A stretch of DNA of 64,000 bases, from positions 2,667,501 to 2,731,500 of the forward strand of contig NZ_JACHIV010000001.1 of the NCBI RefSeq assembly GCF_014203325.1, in the 5' to 3' direction. The translations under genes were made by a program, and so were the position numbers. This document shows, piece after piece, positions 24,182 through 48,302 of the stretch. Numbering within the stretch: position 1 is the stretch's first letter; every line of letters starts with the position of its first letter. Below the pieces are notes generated by a model. That model ran no database searches, was not told the origin of the DNA, and worked only from the letters and a program-made list of their open reading frames with translations. The DNA comes from Saccharopolyspora gloriosae. GTDB lineage: Bacteria > Actinomycetota > Actinomycetes > Mycobacteriales > Pseudonocardiaceae.

Positions 24182-24228
24182 GTGAACGGACCGTTCGTCC
24201 AAGGGGATTGGGCGAACGGTCCGTTCAC
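24182..24228. repeat. 47-bp intergenic palindrome, copy 1
   Basis: Arms GTGAACGGACCGTTCGTCCAA and TTGGGCGAACGGTCCGTTCAC would be too long to write as a unit; in short, 21-base arms pair with a single T/G wobble around loop GGGGA. Each arm contains its own palindrome GAACGG-A-CCGTTC. It lies 22 bases after fadD, between convergent genes, where the RNA hairpin could end transcription from both sides. It belongs to the dispersed family described in the findings. Confidence 0.9.
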
Positions 24229-24305
24229 TCCGAAAGTCGTGCGAGCCATGCCGACGGTTGCTGCGCGGTGCGCTTCGCGCTGCATCGTTGCGGCATGTGG
24301 AGCGG

Positions 24306-24352
24306 GTGAACGGACCGTCTGCCCAAGGGGATTGGGCGAACGGTCCGTTCAC
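24306..24352. repeat. 47-bp intergenic palindrome, copy 2
   Basis: Same 47-base length, same loop GGGGA and same right arm as copy 1. The left arm differs only at GTCTGCCC in place of GTTCGTCC. It ends 16 bases from the stop of the convergent MpaB-like gene. Copies 1 and 2 are 77 bases apart in the same gap. Confidence 0.9.
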
Positions 24353-24368
24353 CGCGAAAAGCTCCGGG

Positions 24369-25253
24369 TCAGCTGGAGCGGCGGAGCCACTTGGGGTCGA
24401 TGTCGGCGGGGGCCGGGGCGCCCAGGTCCTCGGGGGTGTAGCCGCGCGGGTAGTTCGGGTAGGTGCGGTTGCCCGGGTCCTGCGCCAGCTTCGATTCGGT
24501 GCGCTCCGGCATCCAGCGCACCACGGCCGCCCGCAGCTTCAGCGCGCCGCGCGCGCCCTTGCCCACCCACGCCGGCGCCGCGCGGAAGCCGAAGGCGGTG
24601 AGCATCGGCTCGTCCAGTAGTCCGCGCACGGCCAGCGATACCGGCGGGTGCAGCGGCTTGGGGAACCAGGAGCAGAACAGGTCCAGCGTGTAGCGGCCGA
24701 TCAGGTGGTTGGTCTCGCTGTACTGGAAGTGCTCGCGCTCGTAGTCCGCCTTGAACCGGCGGAAGTCCGCGAACGTCGGCGGGATGTCCTTGATGCCCAT
24801 CCGCTTGCCGACGGCCTGGAAGTAGTAGAACGCCGCATCGCGTTCGTGGGAGTGCAGGGGCCGCCAGCCGAACTCGTCGATCCAGTCGATCGGGTCGTAG
24901 ACGAAGGTCGACAGCACGTACAGCATGTCGTCGTTGGAGATGGTGTAGCGGCCGTGCGCCCGGTTGACCACGCGCAGCGCCTGCTTGCCGCGTTCGGAGT
25001 CGTAGCCGTGCTCGGCGATCTCGGCCATCAGCAGCGCGGTGTCGTCGTAGCGCTGCTGCGGACGTTTCTCGAACTCGCCGGTCGCGGCCAGCAGCGCCGA
25101 GATGCTCGGCACGCAGTAGGTCCGGAACAGGGCGAATTCCAGCGCGCGCTGGTAGTCGAACGGGAACTCGTACCCGATGGAGATCTTGTAGATCTCGTGG
25201 TGATCGGTGACCGGGTCCAGTTCCGCGATGCGCCGCAACCAGGTGCGTGCCAT
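24369..25253 (-). CDS. Oxygenase MpaB family protein (DUF2236)
   Basis: 294 residues. Landmarks of the DUF2236/MpaB family: YEFPFDYQRALEFALFRTYCVPSISALLAATGEF, YDDTALLMAEIAEHG, RAHGRYTISNDDMLYVLSTFVYDPIDWIDEFGWRPL and SETNHLIGRYTLDLFCSW. Family members include rubber oxygenase Lcp and the mycophenolic-acid enzyme MpaB; the conserved Arg/His residues in the middle are associated with b-type heme in Lcp. ATG 25253 has AAGGGAGG seven bases before it. The gene converges on fadD across two 47-bp palindromes. Substrate unknown; a lipid or isoprenoid oxygenase is a guess from family and neighbours. Confidence 0.8.
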   Translation of the reverse strand: MARTWLRRIAELDPVTDHHEIYKISIGYEFPFDYQRALEFALFRTYCVPSISALLAATGEFEKRPQQRYDDTALLMAEIAEHGYDSERGKQALRVVNRAHGRYTISNDDMLYVLSTFVYDPIDWIDEFGWRPLHSHERDAAFYYFQAVGKRMGIKDIPPTFADFRRFKADYEREHFQYSETNHLIGRYTLDLFCSWFPKPLHPPVSLAVRGLLDEPMLTAFGFRAAPAWVGKGARGALKLRAAVVRWMPERTESKLAQDPGNRTYPNYPRGYTPEDLGAPAPADIDPKWLRRSS

Positions 25254-25500
25254 GTCCAACCTCCCTTGCGGCCCGGTGGGTCGAGCCCTCGAAGTGCAAC
25301 GAAACACGAACGCCGAGCGTGACGCGAGCGGCTCGCGCGGGACGGCGGGGCGCGGGGTGCGTCGAACCTCCTGCGATGAGCACGGCAGGGCAGGTCCCCT
25401 TGCGCTTCCGGGCAGCGGAGTGGGGCCGGGGCGACCTTGTGGCGGTATGCGCGGGCTGCCGAGACTGGGCAGAGAGGTCCGGGCGGTGGGGAGAGGTGCT

Positions 25501-26880: not shown

Positions 26881-26916
26881 TCCGCGGTGGCCGCCTGCAG
26901 CCACCGCTCACGCCGA

Positions 26917-35916: not shown

Positions 35917-36669
35917 TCAGCGCGCGTCGCGGGAGCGGATGAGGACGTCGATCCCGTCGAGTACCCGCGCCAGCCCGAACTCGAAGTGGTGCTCCGCACT
36001 GCTGGCGGCGCCGTGCGCCGAGCCCGCGGCGCTGCCGACCTTCGCCGCGGTGGGGAAGTGCTCCGGATCGAGCAGCCGGTCCAGCAGCGGGGCGTGCGCC
36101 TGCCACCACTGCTCATCGGTGAGCCCGGTGCGGCGTTCCGCGTCGGCCGCCTCCAGCGCGCCGCGCGCGGCCGTGCGGGCGTGGCCGAGGACGAGGCTCA
36201 GCACCGAATCCATTTCGACCTCGCTGAGGCCGATGCCGTCGACGGTCCGCAGCTCGCGTTCGTACTTGGCGGTCTCCTGCGGTCCGAGCACCGGCCGGGC
36301 GGTCGCGATCTCCAGCGTCCACGGGTGCCTGCGGTGCAGGTCCCAGTTCTGCCGCGCCACGTGTTCGAGCCGGGCCCGCCAGCCGGTGACCTCGGGGCCG
36401 GGCGCCTCGGTCTCGCCGTAGACGGTGTCGAGCATGACGTCGATCAGGTCGTCCTTGCCGGGCACGTAGGTGTAGAGCGACATCGTCCCGGCGCCGAGGC
36501 GTTCGGCGACGCCGCGCATGGACAGCGCGGCGAGCCCTTCCGCGTCGGCGAGCGCGATGCCGGCCCGCACGATCTCGTCCGCGCCGAGGCCCGGTTTGCG
36601 GGAACGGTGCTCCGGGGCCCGCCACAGCAGTGCCAGCGTCCGCGCCGGGTCCCGTTTCCTGATCACCAT
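35917..36669 (-). CDS. TetR family regulator with TetR_C_1-type ligand domain
   Basis: 250 residues. HTH: IVRAGIALADAEGLAALSMRGVAERLGAGTMSLYTYVPGKDDLIDVM. The C-terminal half (GWRARLEHVARQNWDLHRRHPWTLEI..., LGPQETAKYERELRTVDGIGLSEVEMD) matches the domain found in TetR/TetR-like antibiotic-efflux regulators. ATG 36669 has AGGAG five bases before it. The gene converges on the VIT1-type gene and is divergent, across three 47-bp palindromes, from the 2H phosphoesterase. Target unclear. Confidence 0.85.
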   Translation of the reverse strand: MVIRKRDPARTLALLWRAPEHRSRKPGLGADEIVRAGIALADAEGLAALSMRGVAERLGAGTMSLYTYVPGKDDLIDVMLDTVYGETEAPGPEVTGWRARLEHVARQNWDLHRRHPWTLEIATARPVLGPQETAKYERELRTVDGIGLSEVEMDSVLSLVLGHARTAARGALEAADAERRTGLTDEQWWQAHAPLLDRLLDPEHFPTAAKVGSAAGSAHGAASSAEHHFEFGLARVLDGIDVLIRSRDAR

Positions 36670-36815
36670 GCACGCTCCTGTTCGCCGTCCGATGTTCCGG
36701 ACGCCGCGTGCCGGGGCCGGATTCGGCCACCTAGCCTAGCCAACCCGCCGCGCCGCTTCACCGATCCCGATCATCAAACCCCGCCACCCCGACCACTCGG
36801 CACCCAGCGACCCGG

Positions 36816-36862
36816 ATGAACGGCCCGTTCGCCCAATCCTGTTCGACGAACGGTCCGTTGAC
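36816..36862. repeat. 47-bp intergenic palindrome, copy 3
   Basis: Left arm begins ATGAACGGCCCGTTCG, right arm ends CGAACGGTCCGTTGAC; loop region ATCCTGTTC. Same 47-base length as the others but with several mismatches in the stem. It lies upstream of both flanking genes, so a terminator role is unlikely here. Confidence 0.85.
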
Positions 36863-36903
36863 TCCGAAGCACCACGCGCAGGTCGCCGAGGTGGCGGGAG
36901 TGG

Positions 36904-36950
36904 GTGAGCGGCCCGTTCGCCCAATTCCGTTGGACGAACGGTCCGTTGAC
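36904..36950. repeat. 47-bp intergenic palindrome, copy 4
   Basis: Left arm begins GTGAGCGGCCCGTTCG, right arm ends CGAACGGTCCGTTGAC. It shares the unusual TTGAC end with copy 3, suggesting the two arose from each other by local duplication. Confidence 0.85.
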
Positions 36951-36987
36951 TCGAAACCACATGTCCGCGTCGGCGGGGCCGGAGTGG

Positions 36988-37034
36988 GTGAGCGGCCCGT
37001 TCGTCCAATGTCGTTGGTCGAACGGGCCGTTCAC
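36988..37034. repeat. 47-bp intergenic palindrome, copy 5
   Basis: Left arm begins GTGAGCGGCCCGTTCG, right arm ends CGAACGGGCCGTTCAC. Compared with copy 1 the central A of the left arm is C and the paired T of the right arm is G: a compensatory change that keeps the stem. Confidence 0.85.
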
Positions 37035-37082
37035 TTCGTTCGGTGGGGGCGCGGCGGGGTGGTGCGGCGGTATAAGGGGCGT

Positions 37083-37622
37083 ATGCCTGCTGCTGGTACC
37101 ACCGCTGTGGTGTTTCCCGTGCCCGGAGCCGATGCGTTGCTGCGCGCCGTCGGCGAGCGGTTCCCCGGTGCGGTGCGCGCCGGGTTCCCCGCGCACATCA
37201 CGGTCCTCCACCCGTTCCTGCCGCTGTCCGATGTGGACGATGAGGTGGTGGCGGAGCTGGCCGCGATGTTCGCCCGCCGCGGCCCGCTGCGGGTGGAGTT
37301 CGCCGTGTCCGAGCAGCGGCGCCACTTCGACGAGGGCTTCGTGGCGCTGCTCCTCGAACCGGACGGCCCGCTGCGCGAGCTCACCGCCGAGCTCGGCGCT
37401 CGGTGGGACCTGCGCCCGTACGGCGGCGCCTACGGCGAGCCGGATCCGCACGTGACGGTCGCGCTCGACGTGGCGCCGGAGCAGGCCGGGCTCATCGCCG
37501 AGCAGGCGGCGGGCGCGCTCCCGCCGCCCGCCGACCTCGACGAGGCGTGGCTGGTGGCCTTCGACGGAACCTGGTCGCTGCGAGCGCGCCTACCGCTGGC
37601 TCCCGGAGGGGGCGGTCAGTAG
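37083..37622 (+). CDS. 2H phosphoesterase / 2'-5' RNA ligase family protein
   Basis: 179 residues with the two His-x-Thr motifs of the 2H superfamily: HITVLHPF near residue 38 and PHVTVALD near 123. The size and the pattern around GRWDLRPYGG fit the LigT/ThpR group, whose members act on 2',3'-cyclic or 2'-5' RNA phosphates. Start ATG 37083 is six bases after TATAAG, so the mRNA is probably leaderless. The stop overlaps the end of the convergent marR gene by seven bases. Confidence 0.83.
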   Translation: MPAAGTTAVVFPVPGADALLRAVGERFPGAVRAGFPAHITVLHPFLPLSDVDDEVVAELAAMFARRGPLRVEFAVSEQRRHFDEGFVALLLEPDGPLRELTAELGARWDLRPYGGAYGEPDPHVTVALDVAPEQAGLIAEQAAGALPPPADLDEAWLVAFDGTWSLRARLPLAPGGGGQ

Positions 37623-38173
37623 ACGCCGTCTTCGCCGTTGGCGGCGCGCAAGGTGCGCATGGCCTCGGCGAGCGCCTCCGAACGGTCCAGCCCCAGTGGT
37701 GCGAGCACGCGGCGGCGCAGGATCTCCGCGCAGGCTTCGCGCGCCCGCTCGGCGACGTCGCGGCCGTGGTCGGTGAGCACCGCGTAGGTGACCCGCCGGT
37801 CGGTGTCGCAGGGTTCGCGCACGATGAGGTCCGCCGCGGCGAGCCGGTCGGCGACCTTGGTGAAGCCGCCGCTGCTGAGCGCTGCTTCGCGGGCGAGCCG
37901 GGTCATCGGCATCTTGTGCTCGGGGGAGCGCACCAGCCGCAGCAGGATGTCGAAGGAGCCCGGGGCGAGGCCGAAGCGTTCGGCGATCTCGCTCATCAGG
38001 CGGTCCTGGGTGAGGTGGTAGCCCTCGATGACCAGTCCCCACCAGGTGACGATCTCGTCGTCGTCGGTGTTGGGGTCGGGGCGGGTGCCGGGTATCGCCG
38101 CGCCGTTGCCGCCCGCTCCGTTGTCTGCGGTTCCGGTCGCCCGGACCGCGTTCGTGGCGCTGCCGCCGCTCAC
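37616..38173 (-). CDS. MarR family regulator, likely of the quinone-stress genes
   Basis: 185 residues from GTG 38173, chosen because GAGGGGAG stands five bases upstream; an ATG at 38224 would extend it over the promoter region. A ~45-residue Gly/Ala/Asp-rich lead is followed by the winged HTH: ERFGLAPGSFDILLRLVRSPEHKMPMTRLAREAALSSGGFTKVADRLAAADLIVREPCDTDRRVTYAVLT. It is divergent from the WrbA gene. The set MarR, flavodoxin/quinone reductase, ring-cleaving dioxygenase and hydrolase mirrors Bacillus MhqR control of mhqD/mhqO/azoR, so it likely senses quinones or electrophiles. Confidence 0.85.
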   Translation of the reverse strand: MSGGSATNAVRATGTADNGAGGNGAAIPGTRPDPNTDDDEIVTWWGLVIEGYHLTQDRLMSEIAERFGLAPGSFDILLRLVRSPEHKMPMTRLAREAALSSGGFTKVADRLAAADLIVREPCDTDRRVTYAVLTDHGRDVAERAREACAEILRRRVLAPLGLDRSEALAEAMRTLRAANGEDGVY

Positions 38174-38346
38174 CTGGTCTCCCCTCGCCTCGTCCGTTCG
38201 CGGTAGCCAGTCTACCTCTCTCATGTCTCGTGCAGAAATATCTTGCGTGGAAGACAAAACTCTCCTAAGCTTCGTGTCGCGGAGCCGCGAGGCTCCGAAG
38301 GTGGAAATCGGCCGGGCCAGTGTCCGGCATCAAGAAGGAGTTGATC
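38174..38346. promoter_or_regulatory. Divergent marR / wrbA promoter region
   Basis: 173 bases, with an AT-rich block at about 38220-38275 in otherwise GC-rich DNA. It contains TCTTGCGTGGAAGA, a short inverted repeat (TCTT/AAGA) that may be part of a MarR operator. AAGGAGTTGATC before ATG 38347 is the wrbA ribosome site. The operator is only tentative. Confidence 0.4.
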
Positions 38347-38958
38347 ATGGCCGACCCAGTCAAGCTCAGCGTCATCTACTACTCGTCGACGGGAACGATC
38401 AGCGAGATCGCGAACGCCCTGGTCGCCGAGGCGGAGAAGGCCGGTGCCGAGGTGCGCCTGCGCAAGGCGCCCGAGCTTGCTCCCGACGCGGCGATCGACT
38501 CGAACCCGGCGTGGCGCGCGAACATCGACGCCACGGCCTCGGTGCAGGAGGTCGCCGCCGACGACGTCGTCTGGGCCGACGCGGTGATCTTCGGTTCGCC
38601 GACGCGCTACGGCAACATCGCCGCGCAGCTCAAGCAGTTCATCGACACCCTCGGCGGGGAGTGGCAGCAGGGCCTGCTGGCCGACAAGGTCTACAGCGGC
38701 TTCACCTCCAGCGCCACCAAGCACGGCGGCCAGGAGTCCACGCTGCTGGCGCTGTACAACACGTTCCACCACTTCGGCGGGATCATCGTGAGTCCCGGGT
38801 ACACCGACGGTTCCAAGTTCGTCGACGGCAACCCGTACGGCACCAGCCACGTCGACGCCCAGGGTCAGCTCAAGGTGGACGACGAGACCCGCACCGCCGC
38901 CTCCGTGCAGGCGCGCCGCGTGGTCGCGATCGCCCAGCGGTTGAAGAACGGCGCGTGA
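38347..38958 (+). CDS. wrbA: WrbA-like flavodoxin-fold NAD(P)H:quinone oxidoreductase
   Basis: 203 residues. Flavodoxin fold with the FMN phosphate loop YYSSTGTISEIA at ~11-22, the isoalloxazine-binding GSPTRYGNIAAQLKQFID near 86, and the WrbA C-terminal blocks TKHGGQESTLLALYNTFHHFGGIIVSPGY and NPYGTSHVD. WrbA enzymes reduce quinones by two electrons, avoiding semiquinone radicals. ATG 38347 has AAGGAG eight bases upstream. Divergent from the MarR regulator and followed by the dioxygenase-hydrolase pair. Confidence 0.92.
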   Translation: MADPVKLSVIYYSSTGTISEIANALVAEAEKAGAEVRLRKAPELAPDAAIDSNPAWRANIDATASVQEVAADDVVWADAVIFGSPTRYGNIAAQLKQFIDTLGGEWQQGLLADKVYSGFTSSATKHGGQESTLLALYNTFHHFGGIIVSPGYTDGSKFVDGNPYGTSHVDAQGQLKVDDETRTAASVQARRVVAIAQRLKNGA

Positions 38959-39060
38959 GCGTCCGCTGATCGCCGGTGCGGCGCGGGCCGCATCCCGCGC
39001 CGCACCGGTTCTTTCCGCCTGCCCGCTTCGGTGGCCGTGCGGGCGGCGGAAACGTCAACG

Positions 39061-39120
39061 GCCCTCCCGCCGGGAGGTCGCCTTCGGGGGGTCGGCGGTG
39101 GAGCCTCCCGGCGGGAGGGC
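39061..39120. terminator. Nested palindromic hairpin after wrbA
   Basis: A perfect 17-bp inverted repeat: the arm at 39061-39077 starts GCCCTCCCGCCGGGAGG and pairs with the arm at 39104-39120. Each arm is itself a palindrome (CTCCCG-C-CGGGAG), so alternative folds exist. The loop is 26 bases. It lies 102 bases after wrbA and 97 before the dioxygenase gene. Confidence 0.65.
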
Positions 39121-39216
39121 CGCGGCGAGCCCGTGATATCGCTCCCATGTCCGAGCCGTCGCGCCCGGTCCAGGTCCCTCCGTGGACGAATTCCCTTCCA
39201 GGCATGGAGTTTTTCG

Positions 39217-40182
39217 ATGAGCATCGCTACGAGCGGGCTGCACCACGTCACTGCGATCGCGGGCGACCCGCAGCGCAACGCGGACTTCTACCTGCGGACG
39301 CTCGGCCTACGCCTGGTCAAGACGACGGTGAACTTCGACGACCCGGGCACCTACCACCTCTACTACGGCGACGAGGCCGGACGGCCGGGATCGCTGATGA
39401 CGTTCTTCCCCTGGAAGGGCGCCCCGAGCGGGCGGCACGGCACCGGCCAGGCGACCACCACGGCGCTGTCGGTGCCGGAGGCGTCGATCGGCTGGTGGAA
39501 GCAGCACCTCGCCGCGCAAGGCGTCGAAGTCGGCCAGGTGCACAACCGCGACGGCGAGGACGCGCTGACCTTCCAGGACCCGGACGGCCTGGGGCTCGCG
39601 CTGGTCGCGCACCCGCAGGGCGATCCGCGCGCGCCGTGGGACGACGGCATCGTGCCCGCCGAGCACGGGATTCGCGGGCTGCACTCGGTCACGCTGTCGG
39701 TCACCGACGAGACGGCGACGGCCGCCATGTTCGACGGCCTCGGCTTGTCCTTCGCCGCCCAGGACGGCAACCGGTTCCGGTTCACCGCGGGCGAGGGCGG
39801 CCCCGGCGCGTTCGTCGACGTGCTGGTCACCCCGGACGTTCCGCAAGGGCTGGTGGCCGCGGGCGCGGTGCACCACGTGGCGTGGCGCGCCCCGGACGAG
39901 GCGACGCAGGCGACGTGGCGGGAGGAGCTGCTCGGCTCCGGAGTCGACGTGACGTCCATCTTGGACCGCCAGTACTTCCGGTCGATCTACTTCCGGGAGC
40001 CGGGCGGTACGCTGTTGGAGATCGCCACCGACGAGCCCGGTTTCACCGCGGACGAGCCGCTGCTGGAACTCGGCCGCGCGCTGAAGCTGCCGCCGTGGCT
40101 GGAACCGAAACGCGACGAGATCGACCGGATGCTGCCGAAGCTGAACCTGCCCGCGGAGAACAACCCGGGGGCCACCGCATGA
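39217..40182 (+). CDS. Ring-cleaving dioxygenase (MhqO/MhqA-like glyoxalase-fold)
   Basis: 321 residues made of two vicinal-oxygen-chelate units. Unit one: GLHHVTAIAGDPQRNADFYLRTLGLRLVKTTVNFDDPGTYHLYYGDE. Unit two: GLHSVTLSVTDETATAAMFDGLGL, then VHHVAWRAPDEATQ and YFREPGGTLLEIATDEPGF. The His/Glu metal ligands (HH near residue 9, H near 208, E near 257) are in place. Homologues MhqA/E/O open hydroquinone rings. ATG 39217 follows TGGAG. The stop overlaps the hydrolase start (ATGA), so the two are co-expressed. Confidence 0.85.
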   Translation: MSIATSGLHHVTAIAGDPQRNADFYLRTLGLRLVKTTVNFDDPGTYHLYYGDEAGRPGSLMTFFPWKGAPSGRHGTGQATTTALSVPEASIGWWKQHLAAQGVEVGQVHNRDGEDALTFQDPDGLGLALVAHPQGDPRAPWDDGIVPAEHGIRGLHSVTLSVTDETATAAMFDGLGLSFAAQDGNRFRFTAGEGGPGAFVDVLVTPDVPQGLVAAGAVHHVAWRAPDEATQATWREELLGSGVDVTSILDRQYFRSIYFREPGGTLLEIATDEPGFTADEPLLELGRALKLPPWLEPKRDEIDRMLPKLNLPAENNPGATA

Positions 40183-40793
40183 GCGAGCTGTCGCTGACCC
40201 ACGACCACGTCGACGGCGACGCGGACGCGCCGGTGCTGGTGCTGCTGCACGGAACCGGTGGCTCGCCGGCGGATCTGCGTGGGGTCGCCGACGAGCTCAG
40301 CCCGCGATCCCCGGTGCTGGCACCGGCGGGCCCGGTCTCGGAGGGCGGCGCGGCGCGCTGGTTCCGCCGGTTGGCGGAGGGCGTGTTCGACACCGAGGAC
40401 GTGGTGGCCCGCACGCACCAGCTCGCGGACTTCCTCGCCGAGGCCACCGACGCCTACGGCTGGCACGGCAGACGGCTCGTCGCGGTCGGTTTCTCCAACG
40501 GTGCCAACATCGCCGCGGCGTTGACGCTGCTGCGCCCGGACGCGTTGCGGGAGGCGGTGCTGTTCGCCTCGATGCTGCCCGTGCCGGAGCCGCCGGAGCT
40601 GGACCTGTCCGGTTCGCGGGTGTTCCTCGGCAACGGCGAGGCCGATCCGATGGCTCCGACGGCCGCGGCGAACGCCTTGGTCTCGGCACTGCGCGCCCGC
40701 GGAGCGGACGTCACCGAGCAGTGGCATCCCGGCGGGCACCAGATCACCTCGCCCGGCGTGCGCGCAGCCGCCGAGTGGATCTCCCGACGCTGA
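40179..40793 (+). CDS. Phospholipase/carboxylesterase-like alpha/beta hydrolase (MhqD-like)
   Basis: 204 residues of the alpha/beta hydrolase fold: oxyanion LLHGTGGSPADL, nucleophile elbow GFSNGA with Ser near residue 103, an acid in FLGNGEADPMAP and a final His in WHPGGHQIT. This matches the YfhR/MhqD carboxylesterase group that partners with MhqO/MhqE in Bacillus. It should hydrolyse an ester or ring-cleavage product. ATGA coupling with the dioxygenase. Confidence 0.87.
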   Translation: MSELSLTHDHVDGDADAPVLVLLHGTGGSPADLRGVADELSPRSPVLAPAGPVSEGGAARWFRRLAEGVFDTEDVVARTHQLADFLAEATDAYGWHGRRLVAVGFSNGANIAAALTLLRPDALREAVLFASMLPVPEPPELDLSGSRVFLGNGEADPMAPTAAANALVSALRARGADVTEQWHPGGHQITSPGVRAAAEWISRR

Positions 40794-40810
40794 CACGGGT
40801 CGGGGAGGGA

Positions 40811-40850
40811 GGAGCGGGCCGTTCGCCGGGTGGGGTGAACGGCCCGTTCC
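40811..40850. repeat. Degenerate short relative of the 47-bp palindrome
   Basis: 40 bases with arms GGAGCGGGCCGTTCGCC and GGTGAACGGCCCGTTCC around a short GGGTGG centre. Core GGGCCGTTC/GAACGGCCC matches the family, but the ends and length differ. It lies 18 bases after the hydrolase gene between convergent genes, where it may serve as terminator. Confidence 0.6.
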
Positions 40851-40895
40851 GCATCGCGGGTCGCCGGCGCGTCCGCGACGGTTCCCGGGCGCGGA

Positions 40896-41723
40896 TCACT
40901 GCGGGCCGCACACCGATGCGGCCTTCCGCGCCGCGTCGGTGATCCACGGTTCAGCGGAGTTCAGGCTCGTGTACACCGCGGTCGCAGCGATCAGGTACCG
41001 CTCGTCGACCCGGATGCGCTGGGCGTTGCGCGCCGACTCGTAGCCGTCGGAGCACGCGTTCTGCCCGAGCCCGGACCGCGGGCACCAGATCCCGAACTCC
41101 CACGGGCCGCCGTCGCGGAAGGCGTCGTAGGCGCCGCGCGCCTGTGCCGCGCTGCCGAACGAGATGACCTGCACCGAGGCGAGCACCTGGTTGTCGGCCG
41201 TGATGGTGTCGCTGTCCACGAGATACGTCCCGACCATGGTCCCCGTGCACCCGTATCCGGTGAGCACGTCGGTGACGCCGTCGTCCATCCCGTAGGCCTG
41301 GCCGCAGGGTTTGCTGCCCGCGGATTCCAGCGCGTAGTAGGTGTTCCCGGCGGTGGTGAAGCCCGCCGGGAGCAACGCGTCCCGGGTGAACGGAGTTTCG
41401 GCGTCCCCGGTGTCCAGGTCGGCTTCGCCGGCCGACGGCTCGGCTTCCTCCGAGGTCGGTTCCGCACTGGTCGAGGGTTCCTCGGACTCCTCGGGTTCCT
41501 CGGTGGTCGACGGGTATTCCGAAGGCGCGTCCTGGTCGTGGATCCGAGAGGGGGACGGCGGCTGATCGGCGGCGACGAAGCGCCACAGCTGTTCGGCGTT
41601 GGAGATGCCGAGGAAACCGAACACGGCGATCACACCGGCCACCACCGTGGCGATCGCCGTCCAGGACGGCCCGGAGGAGTTCTCCGGCTGCTTCCCGGCT
41701 CGTTCTGCCTCGTCCTCGGTCAA
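40896..41723 (-). CDS. Membrane-anchored protein with Ser/Glu/Pro stalk, unknown
   Basis: 275 residues. A charged cytoplasmic start of ~20 residues (TEDEAERAGKQPENSS), one membrane helix (WTAIATVVAGVIAVFGFLGI), a ~65-residue acidic stalk of repeated Ser/Glu/Pro/Thr (EEPEESEEPSTSAEPTSEE), and a C-terminal globular domain of ~165 residues. That domain has four or five cysteines (KPCGQAYG, GYGCTGTM, IWCPRSG, NACSDGY, SVCGPQ), consistent with disulfides outside the cell. The only in-frame start is TTG 41723 behind GGGGGG. Family not recognised; a ligand-binding or sensor role would suit the layout. The next minus-strand gene upstream has a similar single-pass build. Confidence 0.7.
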   Translation of the reverse strand: MTEDEAERAGKQPENSSGPSWTAIATVVAGVIAVFGFLGISNAEQLWRFVAADQPPSPSRIHDQDAPSEYPSTTEEPEESEEPSTSAEPTSEEAEPSAGEADLDTGDAETPFTRDALLPAGFTTAGNTYYALESAGSKPCGQAYGMDDGVTDVLTGYGCTGTMVGTYLVDSDTITADNQVLASVQVISFGSAAQARGAYDAFRDGGPWEFGIWCPRSGLGQNACSDGYESARNAQRIRVDERYLIAATAVYTSLNSAEPWITDAARKAASVCGPQ

Positions 41724-41820
41724 GCGCGCCCCCCGGTTCAGCGGCCGTCCTTCGCGATCACGGCCGTGAACCAGGCAGCGTAGCGAATGCGCCGAGCCGG
41801 AAAGGCGCGTTCCGGTGCGC

Positions 41821-42252
41821 TCACGGTTTCGGGTCGGTGGGCGTGAAGGTCAGCGAGGAGGAGACCTCGCAGTGCGTGTTCTCCCCGGTTCCCTCGCACT
41901 GCGCCCCGCTCGACGGCCCTTCGGGCGCGTCGGAGCGTGCGGAGATCTTCGTGTCCCCGTGGCCGGTTCCGGAGGAGCCGACCTCCTTCTTCTCCGGCGG
42001 TGGCGGCGCCGGAGCCTGCGGGGCGGTAGCGGGTGCGACGTGCGGGCGCTGATCCGGCGCTGGCGCATCGAACAGGCACAGCGCGAGCACCGCGGCGACG
42101 ATCGGTGCGCCGAGCACGGCCGCGCGACGAGCGGGGGAGGGTTTCCCGGCCCGCCCGATCGTCACGTCCCCGTGCACCGAGCCGACCTGCACGGTGTGCT
42201 CGCTGGTTCCCGAGACGACGTTGCGCGCGCCGCCCGGCTTTCCTTCGTTCAC
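41821..42252 (-). CDS. Small single-pass protein with RHIM/BASS-like VQVG motif
   Basis: 143 residues from GTG 42252, preceded by AGGAGG four bases upstream. Residues 11-33 read NVVSGTSEHTVQVGSVHGD and then VTIG: an N..SG....VQVG..HGDV pattern. Its core V-Q-V-G equals the RHIM amyloid core of RIPK3, and the whole looks like bacterial amyloid signalling motifs (BASS, group 3) that actinomycete NLR-type immune proteins use to recruit effectors. A membrane helix follows (AAVLGAPIVAAVLALCLF, ~44-61), then a Pro/Ala stalk and a short Ser/Thr-rich end with a Cys pair (AQCEGTGENTHCEVSSS). The motif would face the cytoplasm. Function inferred only from the motif. Confidence 0.6.
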   Translation of the reverse strand: MNEGKPGGARNVVSGTSEHTVQVGSVHGDVTIGRAGKPSPARRAAVLGAPIVAAVLALCLFDAPAPDQRPHVAPATAPQAPAPPPPEKKEVGSSGTGHGDTKISARSDAPEGPSSGAQCEGTGENTHCEVSSSLTFTPTDPKP

Positions 42253-42485
42253 GATCCCTCCTATCGGAATCACCTGAGCGCAAGATTAGCCCTCCTATCG
42301 GTGAAGCGGGGCGGATCGGATCGGATCGGCGGATCACGCGAATTCGCGAACGGGTTCCCGTGAGCGCGGAGAATTGTGCCGAGGTGAACACCGGTTACCT
42401 CCCGTACGCCGTTCGGCGCATGATTCCGCGCGCTGAGCGATGCGCAGTCCGAAATCGGGATCCGCAATTCGCGCCGGGCGGCTGC

Positions 42486-42525
42486 GGGAAAATCCCGCAC
42501 CTTAGCGGGCAGGTGCGGGATTCCC
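42486..42525. terminator. Strong hairpin in the gap before the regulator remnant
   Basis: ATCCCGCACCT at 42492-42502 pairs perfectly with AGGTGCGGGAT at 42511-42521, extended by GGGAA/TTCCC across one bulged A. The loop is eight bases. It stands alone between the VQVG-motif gene and the pseudogene, with no T-run. Confidence 0.5.
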
Positions 42526-42638
42526 GTTCCTCCCTCGCGCGACCAGGGAATGCCGCAGCGTTCAGGAGGTGGGCAGCTCGATCGACTTCAGGAGTCGGCC
42601 AGGCTCACGCCGGTATCCAAGGCCGATCTTGCTGCTGA

Positions 42639-42848
42639 GGTTCGCGGCCGGAGCACGGTGATGTGGTGTGCGGCGATACTCCGCTCGGCGGCCACGTCAT
42701 CGAAGACGGTCGGGATGTGACGGAACCGGCGAGGATGTTCGCGTCGTTGCAGGTTGCTGCACTCGGCGAGGCCGAATCCCTCGACTTGCCGCGGATCATC
42801 TCCGAGGAACCCGCCGCACGCATCGAGGAGTGGGAACGTGCTTGCTGA
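42639..42848 (+). pseudogene. C-terminal remnant of an Scr1/DUF5753-type XRE regulator
   Basis: The open frame after a stop at 42636 reads ...VVCGDTPLGGHVIEDGRDV, then TEPARMFASLQVAALGEAES and LDLPRIISEEPAARIEEWER. This resembles the end of Scr1-family helix-turn-helix proteins, where an ED-x-DV block is followed by F..L...AL...ES..LI. The whole N-terminal HTH and most of the DUF5753 domain are missing, and no frame upstream supplies them. Its stop overlaps the start of the DUF397 gene, the normal arrangement for Scr1-DUF397 pairs, which supports decay in place. Confidence 0.55.
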
Positions 42849-43029
42849 GCCCGACCGGACGAAATCAGATCGATCGGGGCGGGCCAACGCTTGCGTCGAA
42901 GTCGCGGTGAACCTCCCCGGGCGGGCGCTCTGGCTGGACACCGAGCTCGGGGTGGTTTCGCCCGTGTCGATTTCGGATGCTTTCGCGTCGTTCCTCGGTG
43001 CGGTGAAAGCCGGGCGCTTCGACTGCTGA
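42838..43029 (+). CDS. DUF397 domain protein
   Basis: 63 residues from GTG 42838, with GAGGAG seven bases upstream. Pattern: RTKSDRSG...NACVEVAVNLPGRALWLDTELG...FASFLGAVKAGRFD, close to the DUF397 consensus (W..S..S....CVEVA....V.VRDSK......F..FL..VK.G..D), though the usual first Trp and the RDSK part are altered (LWLDTELG). DUF397 proteins accompany Scr1/WhiJ-type XRE regulators in actinomycetes and act in antitoxin-like or developmental switches. Here the partner is only a remnant, so the gene may be an orphan. Confidence 0.75.
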   Translation: MLAEPDRTKSDRSGRANACVEVAVNLPGRALWLDTELGVVSPVSISDAFASFLGAVKAGRFDC

Positions 43030-43120
43030 CGGCGTCGGGGGCGGGCAGCGCCGAGGAGGCCGTGTGTAGGGTTCCCGCAGGACGGTGCCGTGTTCGCCCC
43101 GGAAAGCGAGGAGTGTCCTG

Positions 43121-43306
43121 ATGAGTACCCGGAGCATGACGTTGTTCCTGATCAGGACCCTCGTGTGCCTCGTCGTGGTGGTGGGCGCGGCCTTCTACCT
43201 CGGCTGGTCCTGGCCCGTCGGGATCGCGGTGGGTCTCATCGCCCTCGCCGCGGTCGCGCAGGGCGGCGTCATCCTGTGGCAACGCGGGAAGAACCGCGCC
43301 CAGTAG
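43121..43306 (+). CDS. Small two-helix membrane protein
   Basis: 61 residues: MSTRSMTL, then two hydrophobic segments (FLIRTLVCLVVVVGAAFYLG and WPVGIAVGLIALAAVAQGGVILW) split by a short turn, and a basic end QRGKNRAQ. GAGGAG lies about six bases before ATG 43121. Positive-inside suggests both ends are cytoplasmic. No family recognised. Its stop is one base from the stop of the convergent Hsp70-like gene. Confidence 0.6.
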   Translation: MSTRSMTLFLIRTLVCLVVVVGAAFYLGWSWPVGIAVGLIALAAVAQGGVILWQRGKNRAQ

Positions 43307-43307
43307 G

Positions 43308-45131
43308 TCAGCTCATCGCGTCGCAGCCGGTGGCCAACGGGTCGTTCGCTGCGGTGGGCTCCCACCGGATGTTCGAGAACGTGACGTCCATGCTCTTCTG
43401 GGAGAACACCACGAACGGGGTGTTGACCTTGCCGGGTTCCAGCGTCGACGTCAGTTCGTGGGACGGGACGCCGGTCGGGCGCTCCTTGCCTTCGGTGAAG
43501 CACTCCAGCGGGATCTCGACGGTGGTCCGCTTCCCCAGCGGCAGGTCGCGGAACAGCTCGGTGGCGGGGAGTTCGACTCCGCACGGGTAGTCGCAGTGGA
43601 CGGCGATCCCGGCGTAGCCGGTCGGCGGCGCGTGCAGGACCGCGTCGAACACGAGCGCGCCCTCCGCCAGGTAGGGCGAGAGGTCGACCGGAGGCACGTC
43701 CCCCTTGGTCTGCACGTAGACCTGAGCGGGGAGCGCGTCGTCCCAGGTGGCGCGGAGACCGTCGGAGGTCGACCTGATCCGCGGCCCTTGGGCCAGTCCG
43801 TCCGTGAAGGACTCGCCGCGCCAGTCGTTGAGCTCGGAAGCGCCGAAACCGGAGAACTCAGCGGCGATCTGCCCGTCGTAGACGACGCGCGGCGCCGGTG
43901 GCGGTGCGGCCGTGGTGCCACCGGTGGTCGTGACGAACGAGGTGACCGCGATACCGACGAGCACGACGGCCGCCGCGGCGATTCCCGGCACCAGCCACTT
44001 CCGCCGCGGCCTCGACGGCCTGCCCGCCGGAGTTCCGGCGGACGCGCCTCCCGCTACCGAGGTCGACGCCGCCGAGCGAGGCGGCGCGGACACCTGGGCG
44101 GCGCCGAGCGCGACGGTGTGCTTCGGGTGCAGCGATCCGCGAACGGGCTTGTCGAATTCCTCGGCGATCAGCTGCCCCACCAGCGGGACGCGGGAGGAAC
44201 CTCCGGCCAGCAGCACCGCGGAGAGGTCGTCGGCGGTGAGCCCGGCGGAGGCGGTGGTGCGGTGCAGCGCGTCGATGGTCTGCCGCACCGCGGGCGTGAT
44301 CATCTCGTTGAACTCGAGGCGCGTGATGGTGACCTCGCGCGGTCCGCCCGGCAGCGGAACGGACAGCAGCACGTCCGGTTCGGACGACAGCTCTTCCTTG
44401 GCGCGCAAGCACATCGCCTGGATCGCCGCGCGCGCCTGCGCACCCTCCGGATCGGACTGGTCGAGCTCGCTGATGGCCCCGTCCAACCGCTCGTCGAGGT
44501 GAGCGCAGATCGCGTCGTCGAAGTCGGTGCCGCCGAGGTACTCGATGCCTTCGGGCGTGCCGAGGATCTCCATCCGGCCGTCGCGCATCCGCAGGATGGT
44601 GGTGTCAAAGGTGCCGCCGCCGAGGTCGTAGACGGCGATGACCTCGCCGTCGCCGAGGCGGCGTTCGGTGGAGTAGTGGGTGGCGGCGGCCTCGGGTTCG
44701 GTGAGCAACCGGAAATCGGGGACGTCGGCGAGCCGCGGCACCTCCGCGAAGTGCTCGCGCCGGTACGGCCCCCACATCGCCGGGTAGGTGAGCACCACGG
44801 AATCCGGCGGCCCGCCGACGAGGCGGGCGGTGGTGGCGAGCACGTCGCTCAGCTGCGCGGCCATCAGCTCGGCGGGGGAGTAGCCGGTGCCGCCGAGCAG
44901 CAGCGGGGTGGGATCGCCCAAGCGGCGCTTGAAGTGGCGGGCCACGTTCCTCGGATCGGCGTCCGGGTGCAGGGCGGCGTCCCCGGTCAGCAACGGGCCG
45001 TCCGGGGCGCGGTAGGCCACTGAGGGCACGATCACCGCAGGGGACATCGACACCATGCGAGTGCCGCCCGGCATGCTGAACGCAGCGGAGGTGAACGAGG
45101 TCCCGAGATCGATTCCGACGCCGTAACGCAC
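43308..45131 (-). CDS. Membrane-anchored Hsp70 ATPase fused to ExoP_C-like domain
   Basis: 607 residues from GTG 45131, with AAGGGAG eight bases upstream. Residues 1-~350 are an Hsp70/actin-fold ATPase: GVGIDLGTSFTSAAF, TYPAMWGPYRREHF, LTEPEAAATHY, VYDLGGGTFDTTI and LLAGGSSRVPLV. The substrate-binding domain of DnaK is absent. A linker and membrane helix follow (WLVPGIAAAAVVLVGIAVTSFV, ~379-400). The last ~190 residues, outside the membrane, resemble the ExoP galactose-binding-like C-terminal domain of GH3 glucosidases: CDYPCGVELPATELFRDL, TTVEIPLECF, VNTPFVVFSQKSMDVTFSNI. Divergent from an unknown gene. A wall-glycan sensor coupled to an ATPase is one reading; function unknown. Confidence 0.78.
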   Translation of the reverse strand: MRYGVGIDLGTSFTSAAFSMPGGTRMVSMSPAVIVPSVAYRAPDGPLLTGDAALHPDADPRNVARHFKRRLGDPTPLLLGGTGYSPAELMAAQLSDVLATTARLVGGPPDSVVLTYPAMWGPYRREHFAEVPRLADVPDFRLLTEPEAAATHYSTERRLGDGEVIAVYDLGGGTFDTTILRMRDGRMEILGTPEGIEYLGGTDFDDAICAHLDERLDGAISELDQSDPEGAQARAAIQAMCLRAKEELSSEPDVLLSVPLPGGPREVTITRLEFNEMITPAVRQTIDALHRTTASAGLTADDLSAVLLAGGSSRVPLVGQLIAEEFDKPVRGSLHPKHTVALGAAQVSAPPRSAASTSVAGGASAGTPAGRPSRPRRKWLVPGIAAAAVVLVGIAVTSFVTTTGGTTAAPPPAPRVVYDGQIAAEFSGFGASELNDWRGESFTDGLAQGPRIRSTSDGLRATWDDALPAQVYVQTKGDVPPVDLSPYLAEGALVFDAVLHAPPTGYAGIAVHCDYPCGVELPATELFRDLPLGKRTTVEIPLECFTEGKERPTGVPSHELTSTLEPGKVNTPFVVFSQKSMDVTFSNIRWEPTAANDPLATGCDAMS

Positions 45132-45408
45132 TGCGCGTGCTCCCTTGAGGTCTCCGAAACCGCGGACATCGTGAGCGGTGTGATCAACAATAGCCCTCGG
45201 GGGATGCGCGCAAAATGCCTTTCTTCCGGAGTTTCGGCGCATCTCCGCCCGCTCGCGGTGACGCCGGAACGCGGTCGACGACCCCGGCTCGGAAGGTGGT
45301 GCGCGGTCCTCGGAGCTCGGCCTTCCACGCGGTCGAGCGGTGCACTACTGTCGCGTTCGCCCGATGCCGACCTGCTCGCGGGTCGGCTGGATCGAGGGTT
45401 AGGACGGC

Positions 45409-46650
45409 ATGCCGAGACCTCGCCGCGCGCACGAGCTCATCGAGCCCGTCCCAGCCGAACGGTCCCTCGGACCTCGCGCGGCCCTGGAAGAGCTGGCGGC
45501 GACGTTGCCCCGCCCCGTCCGGTTCGGAGGCGACCTCGGTGCCCGCGCCGGGCAGGAAGTCGAATCCGCCTTCTGCGACGCGGTCGCCGCCGTGCTGAAA
45601 CTGCTGGCGGCAGCGGGATCGGCCGCCGAACCCGCGATCGCGGTGGAGTTCGGGCGCGACGACGCGCTGCGCGCCCGCGTGACGTGCCCGGCCGGGACGC
45701 GATCGGCGAGCTACCTGCGCGTCGCGCTCGGCCGCGACGCCGAGCGGATCGCCGCGGCAGGCGGCGCGCTGGACTGCGCGGTGGCCGACGGCACCGCGAT
45801 CATCACCGCGTCGCTCGTGGACGCGACGGCGTCCCCGGGCCGAGGACGGGACGGCGCGTTCGACCAGCGGGTGCTCGACCTCGTCCGAAGGGGACGGCTC
45901 GCGGTCGGCGACGGACCGGACCGGGACCGGTGGGACGCCGTCGAAGCGAGGGCGGGGACGCCGCCGCGCCTGGCGGTCGTGACCGACGATCCGGTGGACC
46001 CCGAGGTGCTGTCCGAGGCGACGGCGCTCGGGATCGACGTGGTCGTCGTGGACGGTCCCGCCGACGCGGCGCTGGCGGAGCGCTTCCTCGACGAGGACGG
46101 TCCGCACGGATCGATCGACGCGGTGTTCGCCTCCCCGGCGCCGACCCCCGCGTTCCTCGCCGCGCTGCGCCGGAGCAGGCAGCGGGTGGCGGTGAGCCGG
46201 CTCGACGGCCTCGGCGAGGCGGCGCGCGAACTGGCCGAGCGGGCACCGGTGATCGCCGCGCGCCGCGCGCTCGTGTCGGTGCGCGGCTTGATGTCCGGAC
46301 TGCCGCAGGAACACCCGCTGCGGTGGGACGTGGACCAGCTGGCCGCCGAGGCGCACGAGATCACCGAGCTGGACCTGCTCGACGAACTCCTGGCCGGGGG
46401 CATCCGGTTGCCCCGCGGCGTCGGCGAGGACGCCGCGCGGCTGCTCGGCGCGCGCGGCACCGACCCGCGCACCCGGCTCGCGCTGGGCGCCGCCGCGGAC
46501 GAGGAGCAGGTGTGCGCCGCCGCGCAGCGGGAGGTGCTGCGGTGGCGGGCGCAGGCCGGGGCGGTGGGCTTCGGCGGGCGCAACGCGGTGCTGTGCGAGG
46601 TGCTGGTGCGCACCGCGGAAGGACTGCTCAACTCCGCGCGCACTTCCTGA
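45409..46650 (+). CDS. Unknown 413-residue protein divergent from the Hsp70 fusion
   Basis: Soluble, Ala/Arg/Asp-rich protein starting at ATG 45409 with AGGA five bases upstream. The N-terminal ~130 residues look alpha/beta (RFGGDLGARAGQEVESAFCDAVAAVLKLL, AIAVEFGRDDALRARVTCPA). A middle Rossmann-like part follows (PRLAVVTDDPVDPEVLSEATALGIDVVVVDGPADAAL, then GSIDAVFASPAPTPAFLAAL). A helical C-terminus resembles the tails of proteins encoded next to dynamin-like or Hsp70 genes (ITELDLLDELLAGGIRLP..., LCEVLVRTAEGLL). No catalytic motif, signal or membrane helix. The 277-base divergent gap suggests shared control with the Hsp70 gene. No family named. Confidence 0.65.
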   Translation: MPRPRRAHELIEPVPAERSLGPRAALEELAATLPRPVRFGGDLGARAGQEVESAFCDAVAAVLKLLAAAGSAAEPAIAVEFGRDDALRARVTCPAGTRSASYLRVALGRDAERIAAAGGALDCAVADGTAIITASLVDATASPGRGRDGAFDQRVLDLVRRGRLAVGDGPDRDRWDAVEARAGTPPRLAVVTDDPVDPEVLSEATALGIDVVVVDGPADAALAERFLDEDGPHGSIDAVFASPAPTPAFLAALRRSRQRVAVSRLDGLGEAARELAERAPVIAARRALVSVRGLMSGLPQEHPLRWDVDQLAAEAHEITELDLLDELLAGGIRLPRGVGEDAARLLGARGTDPRTRLALGAAADEEQVCAAAQREVLRWRAQAGAVGFGGRNAVLCEVLVRTAEGLLNSARTS

Positions 46651-46723
46651 CGGGTTCCGGGCTCCGCCCGGCGCCGCGATCCACGTCCGCTGCGGCCGAA
46701 TCGGCCCGGCCCGATCGGTTCGA

Positions 46724-46770
46724 GTGAACGGACCGTTCGTCCGACGGGATTGGACGAACGGTCCGTTCAC
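46724..46770. repeat. 47-bp intergenic palindrome, copy 6
   Basis: The best stem of the set: 19 perfect pairs (arms begin GTGAACGGACCGTTCG and end CGAACGGTCCGTTCAC) around a nine-base loop GACGGGATT. It lies 73 bases after the unknown gene at 45409 and well upstream of the MFS gene. Confidence 0.9.
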
Positions 46771-47077
46771 TCCGAACTCCCCGCCGATGTCGCGGTGGGA
46801 GCGAGGGTCGCGGACGAGGTTATAGCCTCGGCGTCCCGCCGAGTCGGGATTGCGCCCCGTTGCAGCCCTGAATGCTCTCCGTCACGCCTCGAATCGAGTG
46901 TCGTCAACGTCACGAACAGTGCCTATGGATCTGCCGGTGAAGTCGGCGGTAGTGATGTGCGAGGCTATAAATGATCGGAAGGCGGGGCATGGGCGAAGCA
47001 GTGGATGGTGCACGACCACGTCGGCCTCGTGATCCGGATCGACCGCCCGTCGCGGCGGCCCCGGGAGTGATCGCGTC
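46771..47077. other. 307-bp leader of the MFS gene
   Basis: No convincing gene. It contains an 11-bp inverted repeat, TTATAGCCTCG at 46820-46830 and CGAGGCTATAA at 46960-46970, 129 bases apart. A 36-codon frame from ATG 46971 (MIGRRGMGEAVDGARPRRP...) ends in a GTGA overlap with the MFS start and might be a leader peptide; it has no ribosome site. Confidence 0.45.
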
Positions 47078-48259
47078 GTGAAGTTCGACCGGCGGATCTC
47101 CGTCCTGCTGGCGCACGCGGTGCTGACGCAGGTCGTCACGTTCGTGCTCCGCCCCGCGACGACCTACCGCGCGCTGGAGCTCGACGTGCCCGCCTCCTGG
47201 CTGGGCGTGCTCTCCGGCAGCTTCGCGCTGGTGCCGCTGGTGCTGGCGCTCCCGGCCGGGCACATCGTGGACCGGTTGGGGGAGCGGCGGGTCATGATCG
47301 CCGGTGGTGTGCTGCTGTGCGCGTCGGGAGCGTGCTTCCTGCTGCTGGGCGGATCGGTGCTGGGGCTGGTCGCGGGCAACGTGCTGCTGGGGACCGGGCA
47401 CCTGTGCTCCGTGATCGGCCAGCAGGCGTTGGTCGCTAACAAGACGTCCTCGGCCCGGCTGGACGCGGCGTTCGGGTACTACACGTTCGCCGCCTCGCTG
47501 GGGCAGGCGGCGGGGCCGCTGCTGATCGTCGTGTTCGGCGGGGCGCGGGCCATCCCGGACACCACGCCGATCTTCTGGGGCGCGACCGCGCTCGCCGCCG
47601 CGCTGCTGGTGTGCTCGTTCGGCATCAGCGGCGGCACCCCGTCGGCCGGGACCGCGCCGGAAGGCTCGCCGGGCGTGCGCGAACTGCTGCGGCTGCCCGG
47701 TCTCGTCCCGGCGCTGAGCACGAGTTGCGTGGTGCTGGCGGCGGTGGACCTGTCGCTGGTCTACCTGCCCGCTCTCGGGGCCGAGCGCGGCATCGCCTCC
47801 GGTGTGGTCGGCGGGCTGCTGGGGCTGCGGGCCGTCGCCTCGATGGTGTCGCGGTTCTTCCTGGGACGGAGCACGCGGCTGCTCGGTCGCCGCCGCCTGC
47901 TGGCCCTGAGCCTCACCGCCTCCGCGGTGGGCCTCGGGCTCACGGCGGCCCCGGTGCCGATCTGGGTGCTCGCGGTCGCGGTGCTCGTCGCGGGCCTCGG
48001 ACTCGGCGTGGGGCAACCGCTGACGATGTCGTGGCTGGCGGAGTCGACGCCACCGGGGTTGCGCGGGCGCGCGATGTCGTTGCGCCTCACCGGGAATCGC
48101 GCGGGCCAGGTCGTGCTGCCCGGCGCGGTGGGCCTGGTGGCCAGCGGCGTCGGCGCCGCCGGAGTCCTGCTCGCCACCGCGCTCGGCCTCGCGGGCACCA
48201 CCTTCCTCGCCCGCCGCCTCCCGCTGGACGGCGGGACCGGCGAGAACCGGTCGGAGTGA
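47078..48259 (+). CDS. Major facilitator superfamily transporter
   Basis: 393 residues, about twelve membrane helices. Landmarks: LGVLSGSFALVPLVLALPAGHIVDRLGERRVM (MFS motif A, DRLGERR), the second-half equivalent SRFFLGRSTRLLGRRR and a final LRLTGNRAGQVVLPGAVG. Drug-efflux-like MFS, probably drug/H+ antiport, but substrate unknown. GTG 47078 lies ten bases after GGGAG and overlaps a possible leader-peptide stop. Its own TGA stop lies inside the next 47-bp palindrome. Position next to the ars genes could be coincidental. Confidence 0.87.
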   Translation: MKFDRRISVLLAHAVLTQVVTFVLRPATTYRALELDVPASWLGVLSGSFALVPLVLALPAGHIVDRLGERRVMIAGGVLLCASGACFLLLGGSVLGLVAGNVLLGTGHLCSVIGQQALVANKTSSARLDAAFGYYTFAASLGQAAGPLLIVVFGGARAIPDTTPIFWGATALAAALLVCSFGISGGTPSAGTAPEGSPGVRELLRLPGLVPALSTSCVVLAAVDLSLVYLPALGAERGIASGVVGGLLGLRAVASMVSRFFLGRSTRLLGRRRLLALSLTASAVGLGLTAAPVPIWVLAVAVLVAGLGLGVGQPLTMSWLAESTPPGLRGRAMSLRLTGNRAGQVVLPGAVGLVASGVGAAGVLLATALGLAGTTFLARRLPLDGGTGENRSE

Positions 48260-48302
48260 ACGGACCGTTCGTCCGATCTCATTGGGCGAACGGTCCGTTC
48301 AC
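48256..48302. repeat. 47-bp intergenic palindrome, copy 7
   Basis: Arms begin GTGAACGGACCGTTCG and end CGAACGGTCCGTTCAC; the centre is CGATCTCATT. The MFS stop codon TGA (48257-48259) is part of the left arm. It ends 16 bases from the stop of the convergent arsI gene, so a bidirectional terminator role fits this copy. Confidence 0.9.

What the first reader, a model, noticed from the sequence alone, without database searches (positions are those of the whole stretch)
24182..48302. A family of 47-bp nested intergenic palindromes, seven full copies in one window
Copies start at 24182, 24306, 36816, 36904, 36988, 46724 and 48256. All are exactly 47 bases, all intergenic, with arms beginning RTGARCGGMCCGTTCG and ending CGAACGGKCCGTTSAC. 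Each arm contains its own palindrome GAACGG-N-CCGTTC, so the element can fold as one long stem or two small ones. Copies 1 and 5 differ by a paired A/T to C/G change, which suggests the stem is selected. Some copies lie between convergent genes (terminator-like), others in a divergent promoter gap, so termination alone does not explain them. They look like REP or mini-element families, but no transposase is nearby.
Basis: seen in the sequence. Interest (0 to 1): 0.8.

Follow-up and report, generated by a model that had tools for sequence, protein, structure and literature searches.

The report
Hairpin repeats of one bacterial family
The window carries seven copies of a 47-letter DNA hairpin that is repeated over 200 times between the genes of this bacterium and recurs, spelled differently in each species, across one actinobacterial family; it resembles known bacterial hairpin repeats but the enzyme that usually spreads them was not found.

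Summary
In detail: all seven 47-bp palindromes lie at the stated coordinates. The own genome holds at least 235 places, a reversed control 0. In 464 kb of own DNA, 141 of 141 copies are intergenic; 37 of 43 occupied gaps hold arrays of 2-6; the first copy sits a median 19 nt past the stop codon; convergent gaps are favoured. All six genomes of the genus searched carry 82-235. Other Pseudonocardiaceae carry versions with the same foot (GAACGG-31-CCGTTC) and a changed but compensated stem: 14 of 14 variable pairs changed on both sides. Outside the family counts are at background. Near relatives share sites and differ in array size; deeper lineages mostly do not share sites. No Y1/RAYT transposase was found in this genome and there is no GTAG/CGTC tag: REP/BIME-like in behaviour, not a RAYT-REP. 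G-T mismatches exceed A-C about 2:1 on the leading-strand sequence and flip with replichore, moderate evidence for a single strand folded at replication. Terminator function is untested; one indirect test failed. New variant of a known kind.

The parts
24182..24228 (.). 47-bp hairpin, site A copy 1, 22 nt after the stop of gene 22342-24159, convergent gap
24306..24352 (.). 47-bp hairpin, site A copy 2 (left arm two bases off)
36816..36862 (.). 47-bp hairpin, site B copy 1, divergent gap 36669-37137; weak fold (-17.4 kcal/mol)
36904..36950 (.). 47-bp hairpin, site B copy 2
36988..37034 (.). 47-bp hairpin, site B copy 3; carries the paired C/G variant
46724..46770 (.). 47-bp hairpin, site C, co-directional gap 46650-47078
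48256..48302 (.). 47-bp hairpin, site D, supplies the stop codon of gene 47078-48259; convergent gap
40812..40849 (.). shorter relative: two arm palindromes (one with a mismatch) 12 bases apart instead of 17

Best explanation
A REP/BIME-like repeat: a non-coding hairpin of fixed length (47 nt, usually 51 with two more paired bases at each foot) that has multiplied in intergenic DNA of Pseudonocardiaceae. SHOWN: about 80 to 235 copies in each of six genomes of the genus; none inside called genes in the sample; a place just past stop codons; local tandem arrays that gain and lose copies; species-specific spelling with the stem kept by paired changes; sites stable between near relatives but mostly not shared between deeper lineages; no Y1 transposase found in this genome. 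INFERRED: the folded single strand is what is kept. As RNA, a 21-bp stem (about -39 kcal/mol in intact copies) at a transcript's 3' end would hinder read-through or exonucleases from either side, so copies behind genes are tolerated or useful while copies in genes are purged. As DNA, the same hairpin exposed on the lagging-strand template is where replication slips or switches template, which would change array size and keep the arms complementary. How copies reach new gaps is unknown: a mobiliser other than a Y1 transposase, or recombination carrying flanking DNA, are both open.
For: Copy number and controls. All 141 of 141 copies intergenic in 464 kb that is 80.1% coding; 43 gaps occupied: 21 of 48 convergent, 15 of 124 co-directional, 7 of 68 divergent (convergent against the rest p 2e-6); first copy within 45 nt of the stop at 45 of 57 gene ends. 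Array spacers more alike within than between arrays, 0.418 against 0.278; copy number differs at 3 of 7 shared sites between G000 and G001 and at 1 of 8 between G004 and G005. Compensation across 12 genera. Replication-strand asymmetry of mismatches: 132:64 against 33:64 on the + strand of the two replichores; per array 147:90. REPs in the literature have the same gene context (PMC3733652 section 15).
Against: No expression data. The indirect test that occupied convergent gaps lack other hairpins failed once fragment lengths were matched (p 0.96). The strand asymmetry is not transcription-oriented (37:44), which does not favour an RNA role; against the intergenic mutation baseline its p is 0.064, and in G002 alone, per array, 22:12, p 0.12, with one of the two changes leaning the other way. 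Within the own genome pair counts do not exceed shuffles. Some g65 genomes carry copies whose arms do not pair, so a perfect stem is not always needed.
Confidence: 0.6

Rival explanations
1. Neutral self-perfecting palindromes: polymerase template switching at imperfect inverted repeats copies one arm onto the other, so mutation and not selection keeps the stem, and slippage makes the arrays. The repeats do nothing for the cell.
For: Template switching is known to make quasipalindromes more perfect (PMC7202029, abstract and introduction). Arrays change by local duplication. Strand asymmetry follows replication, not transcription.
Against: Does not by itself explain the conserved foot and 47-nt length across genera, nor the strong preference for gene 3' ends, though purging from genes and promoters could give the latter. 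One-sided changes are common.
Confidence: 0.2
2. A non-autonomous mobile element (MITE-like) moved by an unidentified transposase or recombinase that reads the foot GAACGG on both ends.
For: Fixed length and conserved ends in many genomes; patchy presence within genera, e.g. g26 0 to 175; sites gained and lost between lineages.
Against: No recurring gene between neighbouring copies apart from one weak pair (19 intervals); no new site between relatives at 93.2% and 98.7% identity (15 of 15 sites shared); no clean empty-site junction could be read. Only 25 of 247 families of flanking genes were shown.
Confidence: 0.13
3. Binding sites of a DNA-binding protein: each arm is a 13-bp dimer site and the array is a chromosomal landmark or operator.
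For: Arm palindrome exact in 9 of 14 window arms; copies also in divergent gaps (7 of 43); arms that do not pair with each other in some g65 genomes.
Against: The arm palindrome is lost in many genera while the long stem is compensated; preference for gene 3' ends.
Confidence: 0.05
4. A RAYT-mobilised REP family.
For: Abundance, hairpin and gene context resemble REPs.
Against: PF01797 gives 0 hits in G000-G003 although the same search rings in E. coli; G018, with 175 copies, also has 0. No GTAG or CGTC at the foot. Past loss of the gene cannot be excluded.
Confidence: 0.02

Closest known systems
CGTC-tagged REPs (Di Nocera et al. 2013, PMC3733652; abstract, passages, sections 6 and 15 seen)
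   Same: Repeated intergenic hairpins, downstream of genes and in convergent gaps, no dedicated transposase
   Different: There stems of 8-9 bp with an unpaired CGTC end and tail, mostly Proteobacteria; here a 21-bp or longer symmetric stem, no tag, Pseudonocardiaceae
GTAG REPs, REPINs and BIMEs with RAYTs (PMC3733652; PMC6006769 passages; PMC2817692 and PMC3116915 in listings only)
   Same: High copy number, hairpin, arrays, intergenic 3' position, species-specific families
   Different: No Y1 transposase found in this genome, no GTAG foot; each unit here is itself a full symmetric palindrome
Quasipalindrome template-switch sites (PMC7202029, abstract and introduction seen)
   Same: Arms kept complementary; linked to replication
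   Different: A mutational process at single sites, not a repeat family with a conserved foot and length
CRISPR arrays (recalled)
   Same: Palindromic repeats separated by spacers of similar length
   Different: Spacers within an array are related to each other, 1-6 copies at each of 70 sampled sites, dispersed over the genome; cas genes were not searched for

Membership tests
RAYT-associated GTAG REP | Y1 (RAYT) transposase gene in the genome | tested here: not met
   PF01797: 0 hits in G000-G003, 1 in G004, 2 in G005; control rings in E. coli
RAYT-associated GTAG REP | Unpaired GTAG at the hairpin foot | tested here: not met
   Flank composition of the 217-copy sample: paired G-R before and Y-C after, no GTAG
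CGTC REP | Unpaired CGTC end, stem 8-9 bp | tested here: not met
   No CGTC in the flank consensus; stem of 21 pairs or more in intact copies
REP-like repeat in the broad sense | Many intergenic palindromic copies, mostly downstream of genes | tested here: met
   235 places; 141 of 141 intergenic, 45 of 57 gene ends with a copy within 45 nt of the stop
REP-like repeat in the broad sense | Size of 20-40 bp (as given in PMC3733652) | tested here: not met
   47 nt
MITE | Clean empty site or target duplication | tested here: inconclusive
   No new site between near relatives; flanks of older sites too diverged
Intrinsic terminator | Hairpin followed by a T tract | tested here: not met
   Scan of 36000-49500 (5 of 7 copies): 3 sites, none at a copy, 4.0 expected
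Intrinsic terminator | Transcripts end at the hairpin | not testable with these tools
   No expression data; the indirect test was negative
Known Rfam family | Match at gathering score | tested here: not met
   0 matches in the window

The most novel reading that the evidence does not exclude
A transposase-free hairpin repeat that lives off replication: the strand folded on the lagging-strand template is the unit of maintenance, template switching keeps its arms complementary and slippage multiplies it in place, so that species across a whole bacterial family carry tens to hundreds of copies in their own dialects with only the foot GAACGG and the 47-nt length held constant, perhaps by one conserved host protein that reads the foot.
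Probability: 0.25. Interest if true: 0.75.

Novelty: new variant of a known kind. Interest (0 to 1): 0.5.

Why it matters
REP-type repeats are usually explained by RAYT transposases. Here is a family-wide set in many dialects with a very strong hairpin, and no such enzyme was found in the genome at hand; the hosts are actinomycetes. It offers natural experiments (genomes of one genus with 0 and 175 copies) in which the factor that spreads or keeps such repeats can be sought, and arrays whose copy number changes between close relatives. The replication-strand asymmetry makes it testable whether such hairpins are kept by selection or by self-correction.

Tried and rejected
RAYT mobilisation: rejected for this genome. 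Rfam: nothing in the window. T-tract terminators: none at the 5 copies scanned. Terminator replacement: one search suggested that occupied convergent gaps lack other hairpins (best MFE of -30 or lower in 20% of 40 against 50% of 171), but with empty gaps cut in the same way the difference vanished (36 of 39 occupied gaps used, p 0.96); dropped. A few empty orthologous gaps do hold another hairpin; anecdotal. Transcription-oriented wobble: not seen (37:44 in 57 copies). Orientation from the loop: little (75:61). Within-genome covariation on 42 copies: not above shuffles. Gene family bounded by copies: none recurring except one weak pair. Viral contigs (exact pattern), plasmids and phages (one 251-bp query): no match. 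Cassette movement: a four-gene arsenic-type block lies beside site D in G000 and G001 but between the two site-A copies in G002; one case, kept as an observation.

Limits and dropped rows: G005 (5 hits) was left out because its contig is rotated differently. The replichore border was 3.4 Mb and mid-contig; GC skew of single stretches follows it only roughly. One search left out G005 as a near copy of G004. Alignment A3 holds 30 rows from 12 genera chosen from fetched loci, one chance row (L247) included; six of its seven never-varying pairs are fixed by the search pattern. The own-genome stretches were chosen because they hold copies. Gene calls are from my own simple caller. The copy finder sees the main dialect only and missed a second-dialect copy in G002. 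In one search all 150 scored candidates matched, so that count is a cap; likewise 95. Several of the 22 gap rows could not be compared in every genome.
Full report
OBSERVATION. Six of the seven were folded as RNA: 24182, 46724 and 48256 form one unbroken stem of 21-22 pairs at about -39 kcal/mol, 36988 reaches -38.2 with one mismatch, 36904 gives -26.1 and 36816 -17.4. Two copies folded as DNA give about -25. The window is G000:C1:2667501-2731500 of a 6.83-Mb single-contig genome.

HOW MANY AND WHERE. Exact two-palindrome matches: 76 in the own genome, 0 for the reversed pattern. With three mismatches: 235 in the own genome and 82, 91, 99, 174 and 194 in the five congeners; 0 reversed matches in all 150 family genomes searched; only 3 of the 144 genomes of other genera have 1-2 hits. 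In 464 kb of own DNA my gene caller gives 80.1% coding; all 141 copies are intergenic, 8 of 6,627 element bases overlap a called gene, and 2 genes have their stop codon in a copy. The copies fill 43 gaps: 21 of 48 convergent, 15 of 124 co-directional, 7 of 68 divergent (gaps of at least 60 bp; convergent against the rest p 2e-6). The first copy lies at most 45 nt past the stop codon at 45 of 57 gene ends, median 19; the distance to gene starts exceeds 100 nt in 22 of 29 cases.

ARRAYS. 37 of 43 gaps hold 2-6 copies with start-to-start steps of 62-132 bp. Spacers within an array are more alike (0.418) than between arrays (0.278; shuffled 0.239), so arrays grow by tandem duplication of element plus spacer. 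In G004/G005 one array has 2 against 3 copies of a 108-bp unit. Copies are unevenly spread: 97 in 240 kb at 0.68-0.92 Mb but 18 in the 264 kb that start with the window.

HISTORY OF SITES. G000 and G001 (93.2% identical over 236 kb) share 7 of 7 sites and differ in copy number at 3; G004 and G005 (98.7%) share 8 of 8 and differ at 1. Across the four lineages G000/G001, G002, G003 and G004/G005, 22 gap rows were listed; only two gaps (30/31 and 154/155) hold copies in more than one lineage, not counting the rearranged surroundings of sites A and D, and 11 rows have an intact but empty gap in another lineage. Examples: gap 155/156 has 5 copies in G000, 4 in G001, none in G004 or G005; gap 80/81 has 2 in G002, none in G000 or G001. 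So sites are gained and lost over the age of the genus, but no gain was caught between near relatives and no clean junction could be read.

FAMILY-WIDE RELATIVES. The covariance model found related hairpins in other genera. They keep the foot GAACGG...CCGTTC with 31 bases between and change the rest of the stem on both sides. The exact pattern GAACGG-31-CCGTTC gives 101-182 in the six genomes of this genus, 175 in G018 and in G138, 81 in G215, 73 and 70 in two g16 genomes; 29 of the 194 genomes of other genera have 10 or more, the reversed control never more than 3. Presence is patchy within genera: g26 ranges from 0 to 175. In 296 genomes of the class none outside the family exceeds 6. The exact pattern search of genome contigs gave 37 of 38 stretches in NFXS83 and 1 in P. 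hydrocarbonoxydans, with near records possibly left out. On 30 rows from 12 genera, 14 of 14 variable pairs show changes on both sides, 123 such cells against 39.4 +/- 5.1 in shuffles, covariation 0.512 against 0.143. Within 42 own-genome copies there was no excess. Three g65 genomes print copies whose two arms do not pair, and G002 has a second dialect and a pair of copies whose outer arms match each other.

STRAND ASYMMETRY. On the + strand, G-T mismatches exceed A-C 132:64 at 0.68-3.06 Mb and fall short 33:64 at 3.8-6.7 Mb (217 copies). Oriented by transcription (57 copies in co-directional gaps) the excess vanishes, 37:44. Counting each change once per array: 147 G-T-type against 90 A-C-type; 39 arrays lean one way, 14 the other, 17 tie (p 0.0008). 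The ordinary mutational asymmetry in the window, polarised by G002, is 521:475 at all sites and 128:111 between genes; against these the excess has p 0.007 and 0.064. Two specific changes sought in G000, G002 and G003 give 56:20 raw and 43:18 per array (p 0.002); G002 alone gives 30:14 raw (p 0.02) and 22:12 per array (p 0.12), and its C15-to-T change leans the other way (4:7 raw). Reading: a hairpin on the lagging-strand template tolerates G-T but not A-C. This is an inference from a moderate signal.

MOBILISER. PF01797 has 0 hits in G000-G003, 1 in G004 and 2 in G005. Nineteen intervals between neighbouring copies hold no recurring gene family apart from one pair at 31% identity. Of 129 array-flanking genes 121 were scanned; 247 Pfam families matched and the 25 shown are ordinary metabolic, transport and regulatory ones; rarer families are not shown, so a single transposase could be hidden.

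LITERATURE. Searches listed no paper on this repeat or on REP-like repeats of Pseudonocardiaceae. These were listings, apart from PMC3733652 (abstract, passages, sections 6 and 15), PMC6006769 (passages) and PMC7202029 (abstract and introduction). The library holds open-licence papers only. PMC3733652 reports for REPs the same gene context (most convergent REPs under 20 bp from both gene ends) and, for CGTC REPs, no dedicated transposase.

VERDICT. A real, large family of REP-like hairpin repeats, not described in the searches made here; typical in placement, unusual in stem length, untagged symmetric form, family-wide dialects and the absence of a RAYT in this genome. What keeps and spreads it is open; I favour the folded single strand acting at gene 3' ends and at the replication fork.

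Noticed in passing
window 48318-50656: A glyoxalase / ArsR / SBF-type transporter / low-molecular-weight phosphatase block (arsenic-operon-like) lies right of element D here and in G001, but a 75%-identical block sits between the two site-A elements in G002.
   Followed up: partly
G000:C1:680001-920000 (L140-L151): Very dense zone: 97 copies in 240 kb against 18 in the 264 kb that start with the window; its cause was not studied.
   Followed up: no
G002 gap 80/81: Two neighbouring copies have arms of two dialects arranged so that the outer arms match each other and the inner arms match each other, as if one element had been split at its centre.
   Followed up: no
G212, G189, G201: Copies in this genus (g65) often have two arms of different spelling that do not pair, with a shared centre containing TAGAAGC.
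   Followed up: no
window 40812-40849 and 55640-55652: A shorter two-arm relative in the first place, and a lone exact arm palindrome inside called gene 54273-55724 in the second.
   Followed up: no
L106 and L111 (G005, G004): Y1 transposase genes present in two congeners only; not checked for nearby repeats.
   Followed up: no
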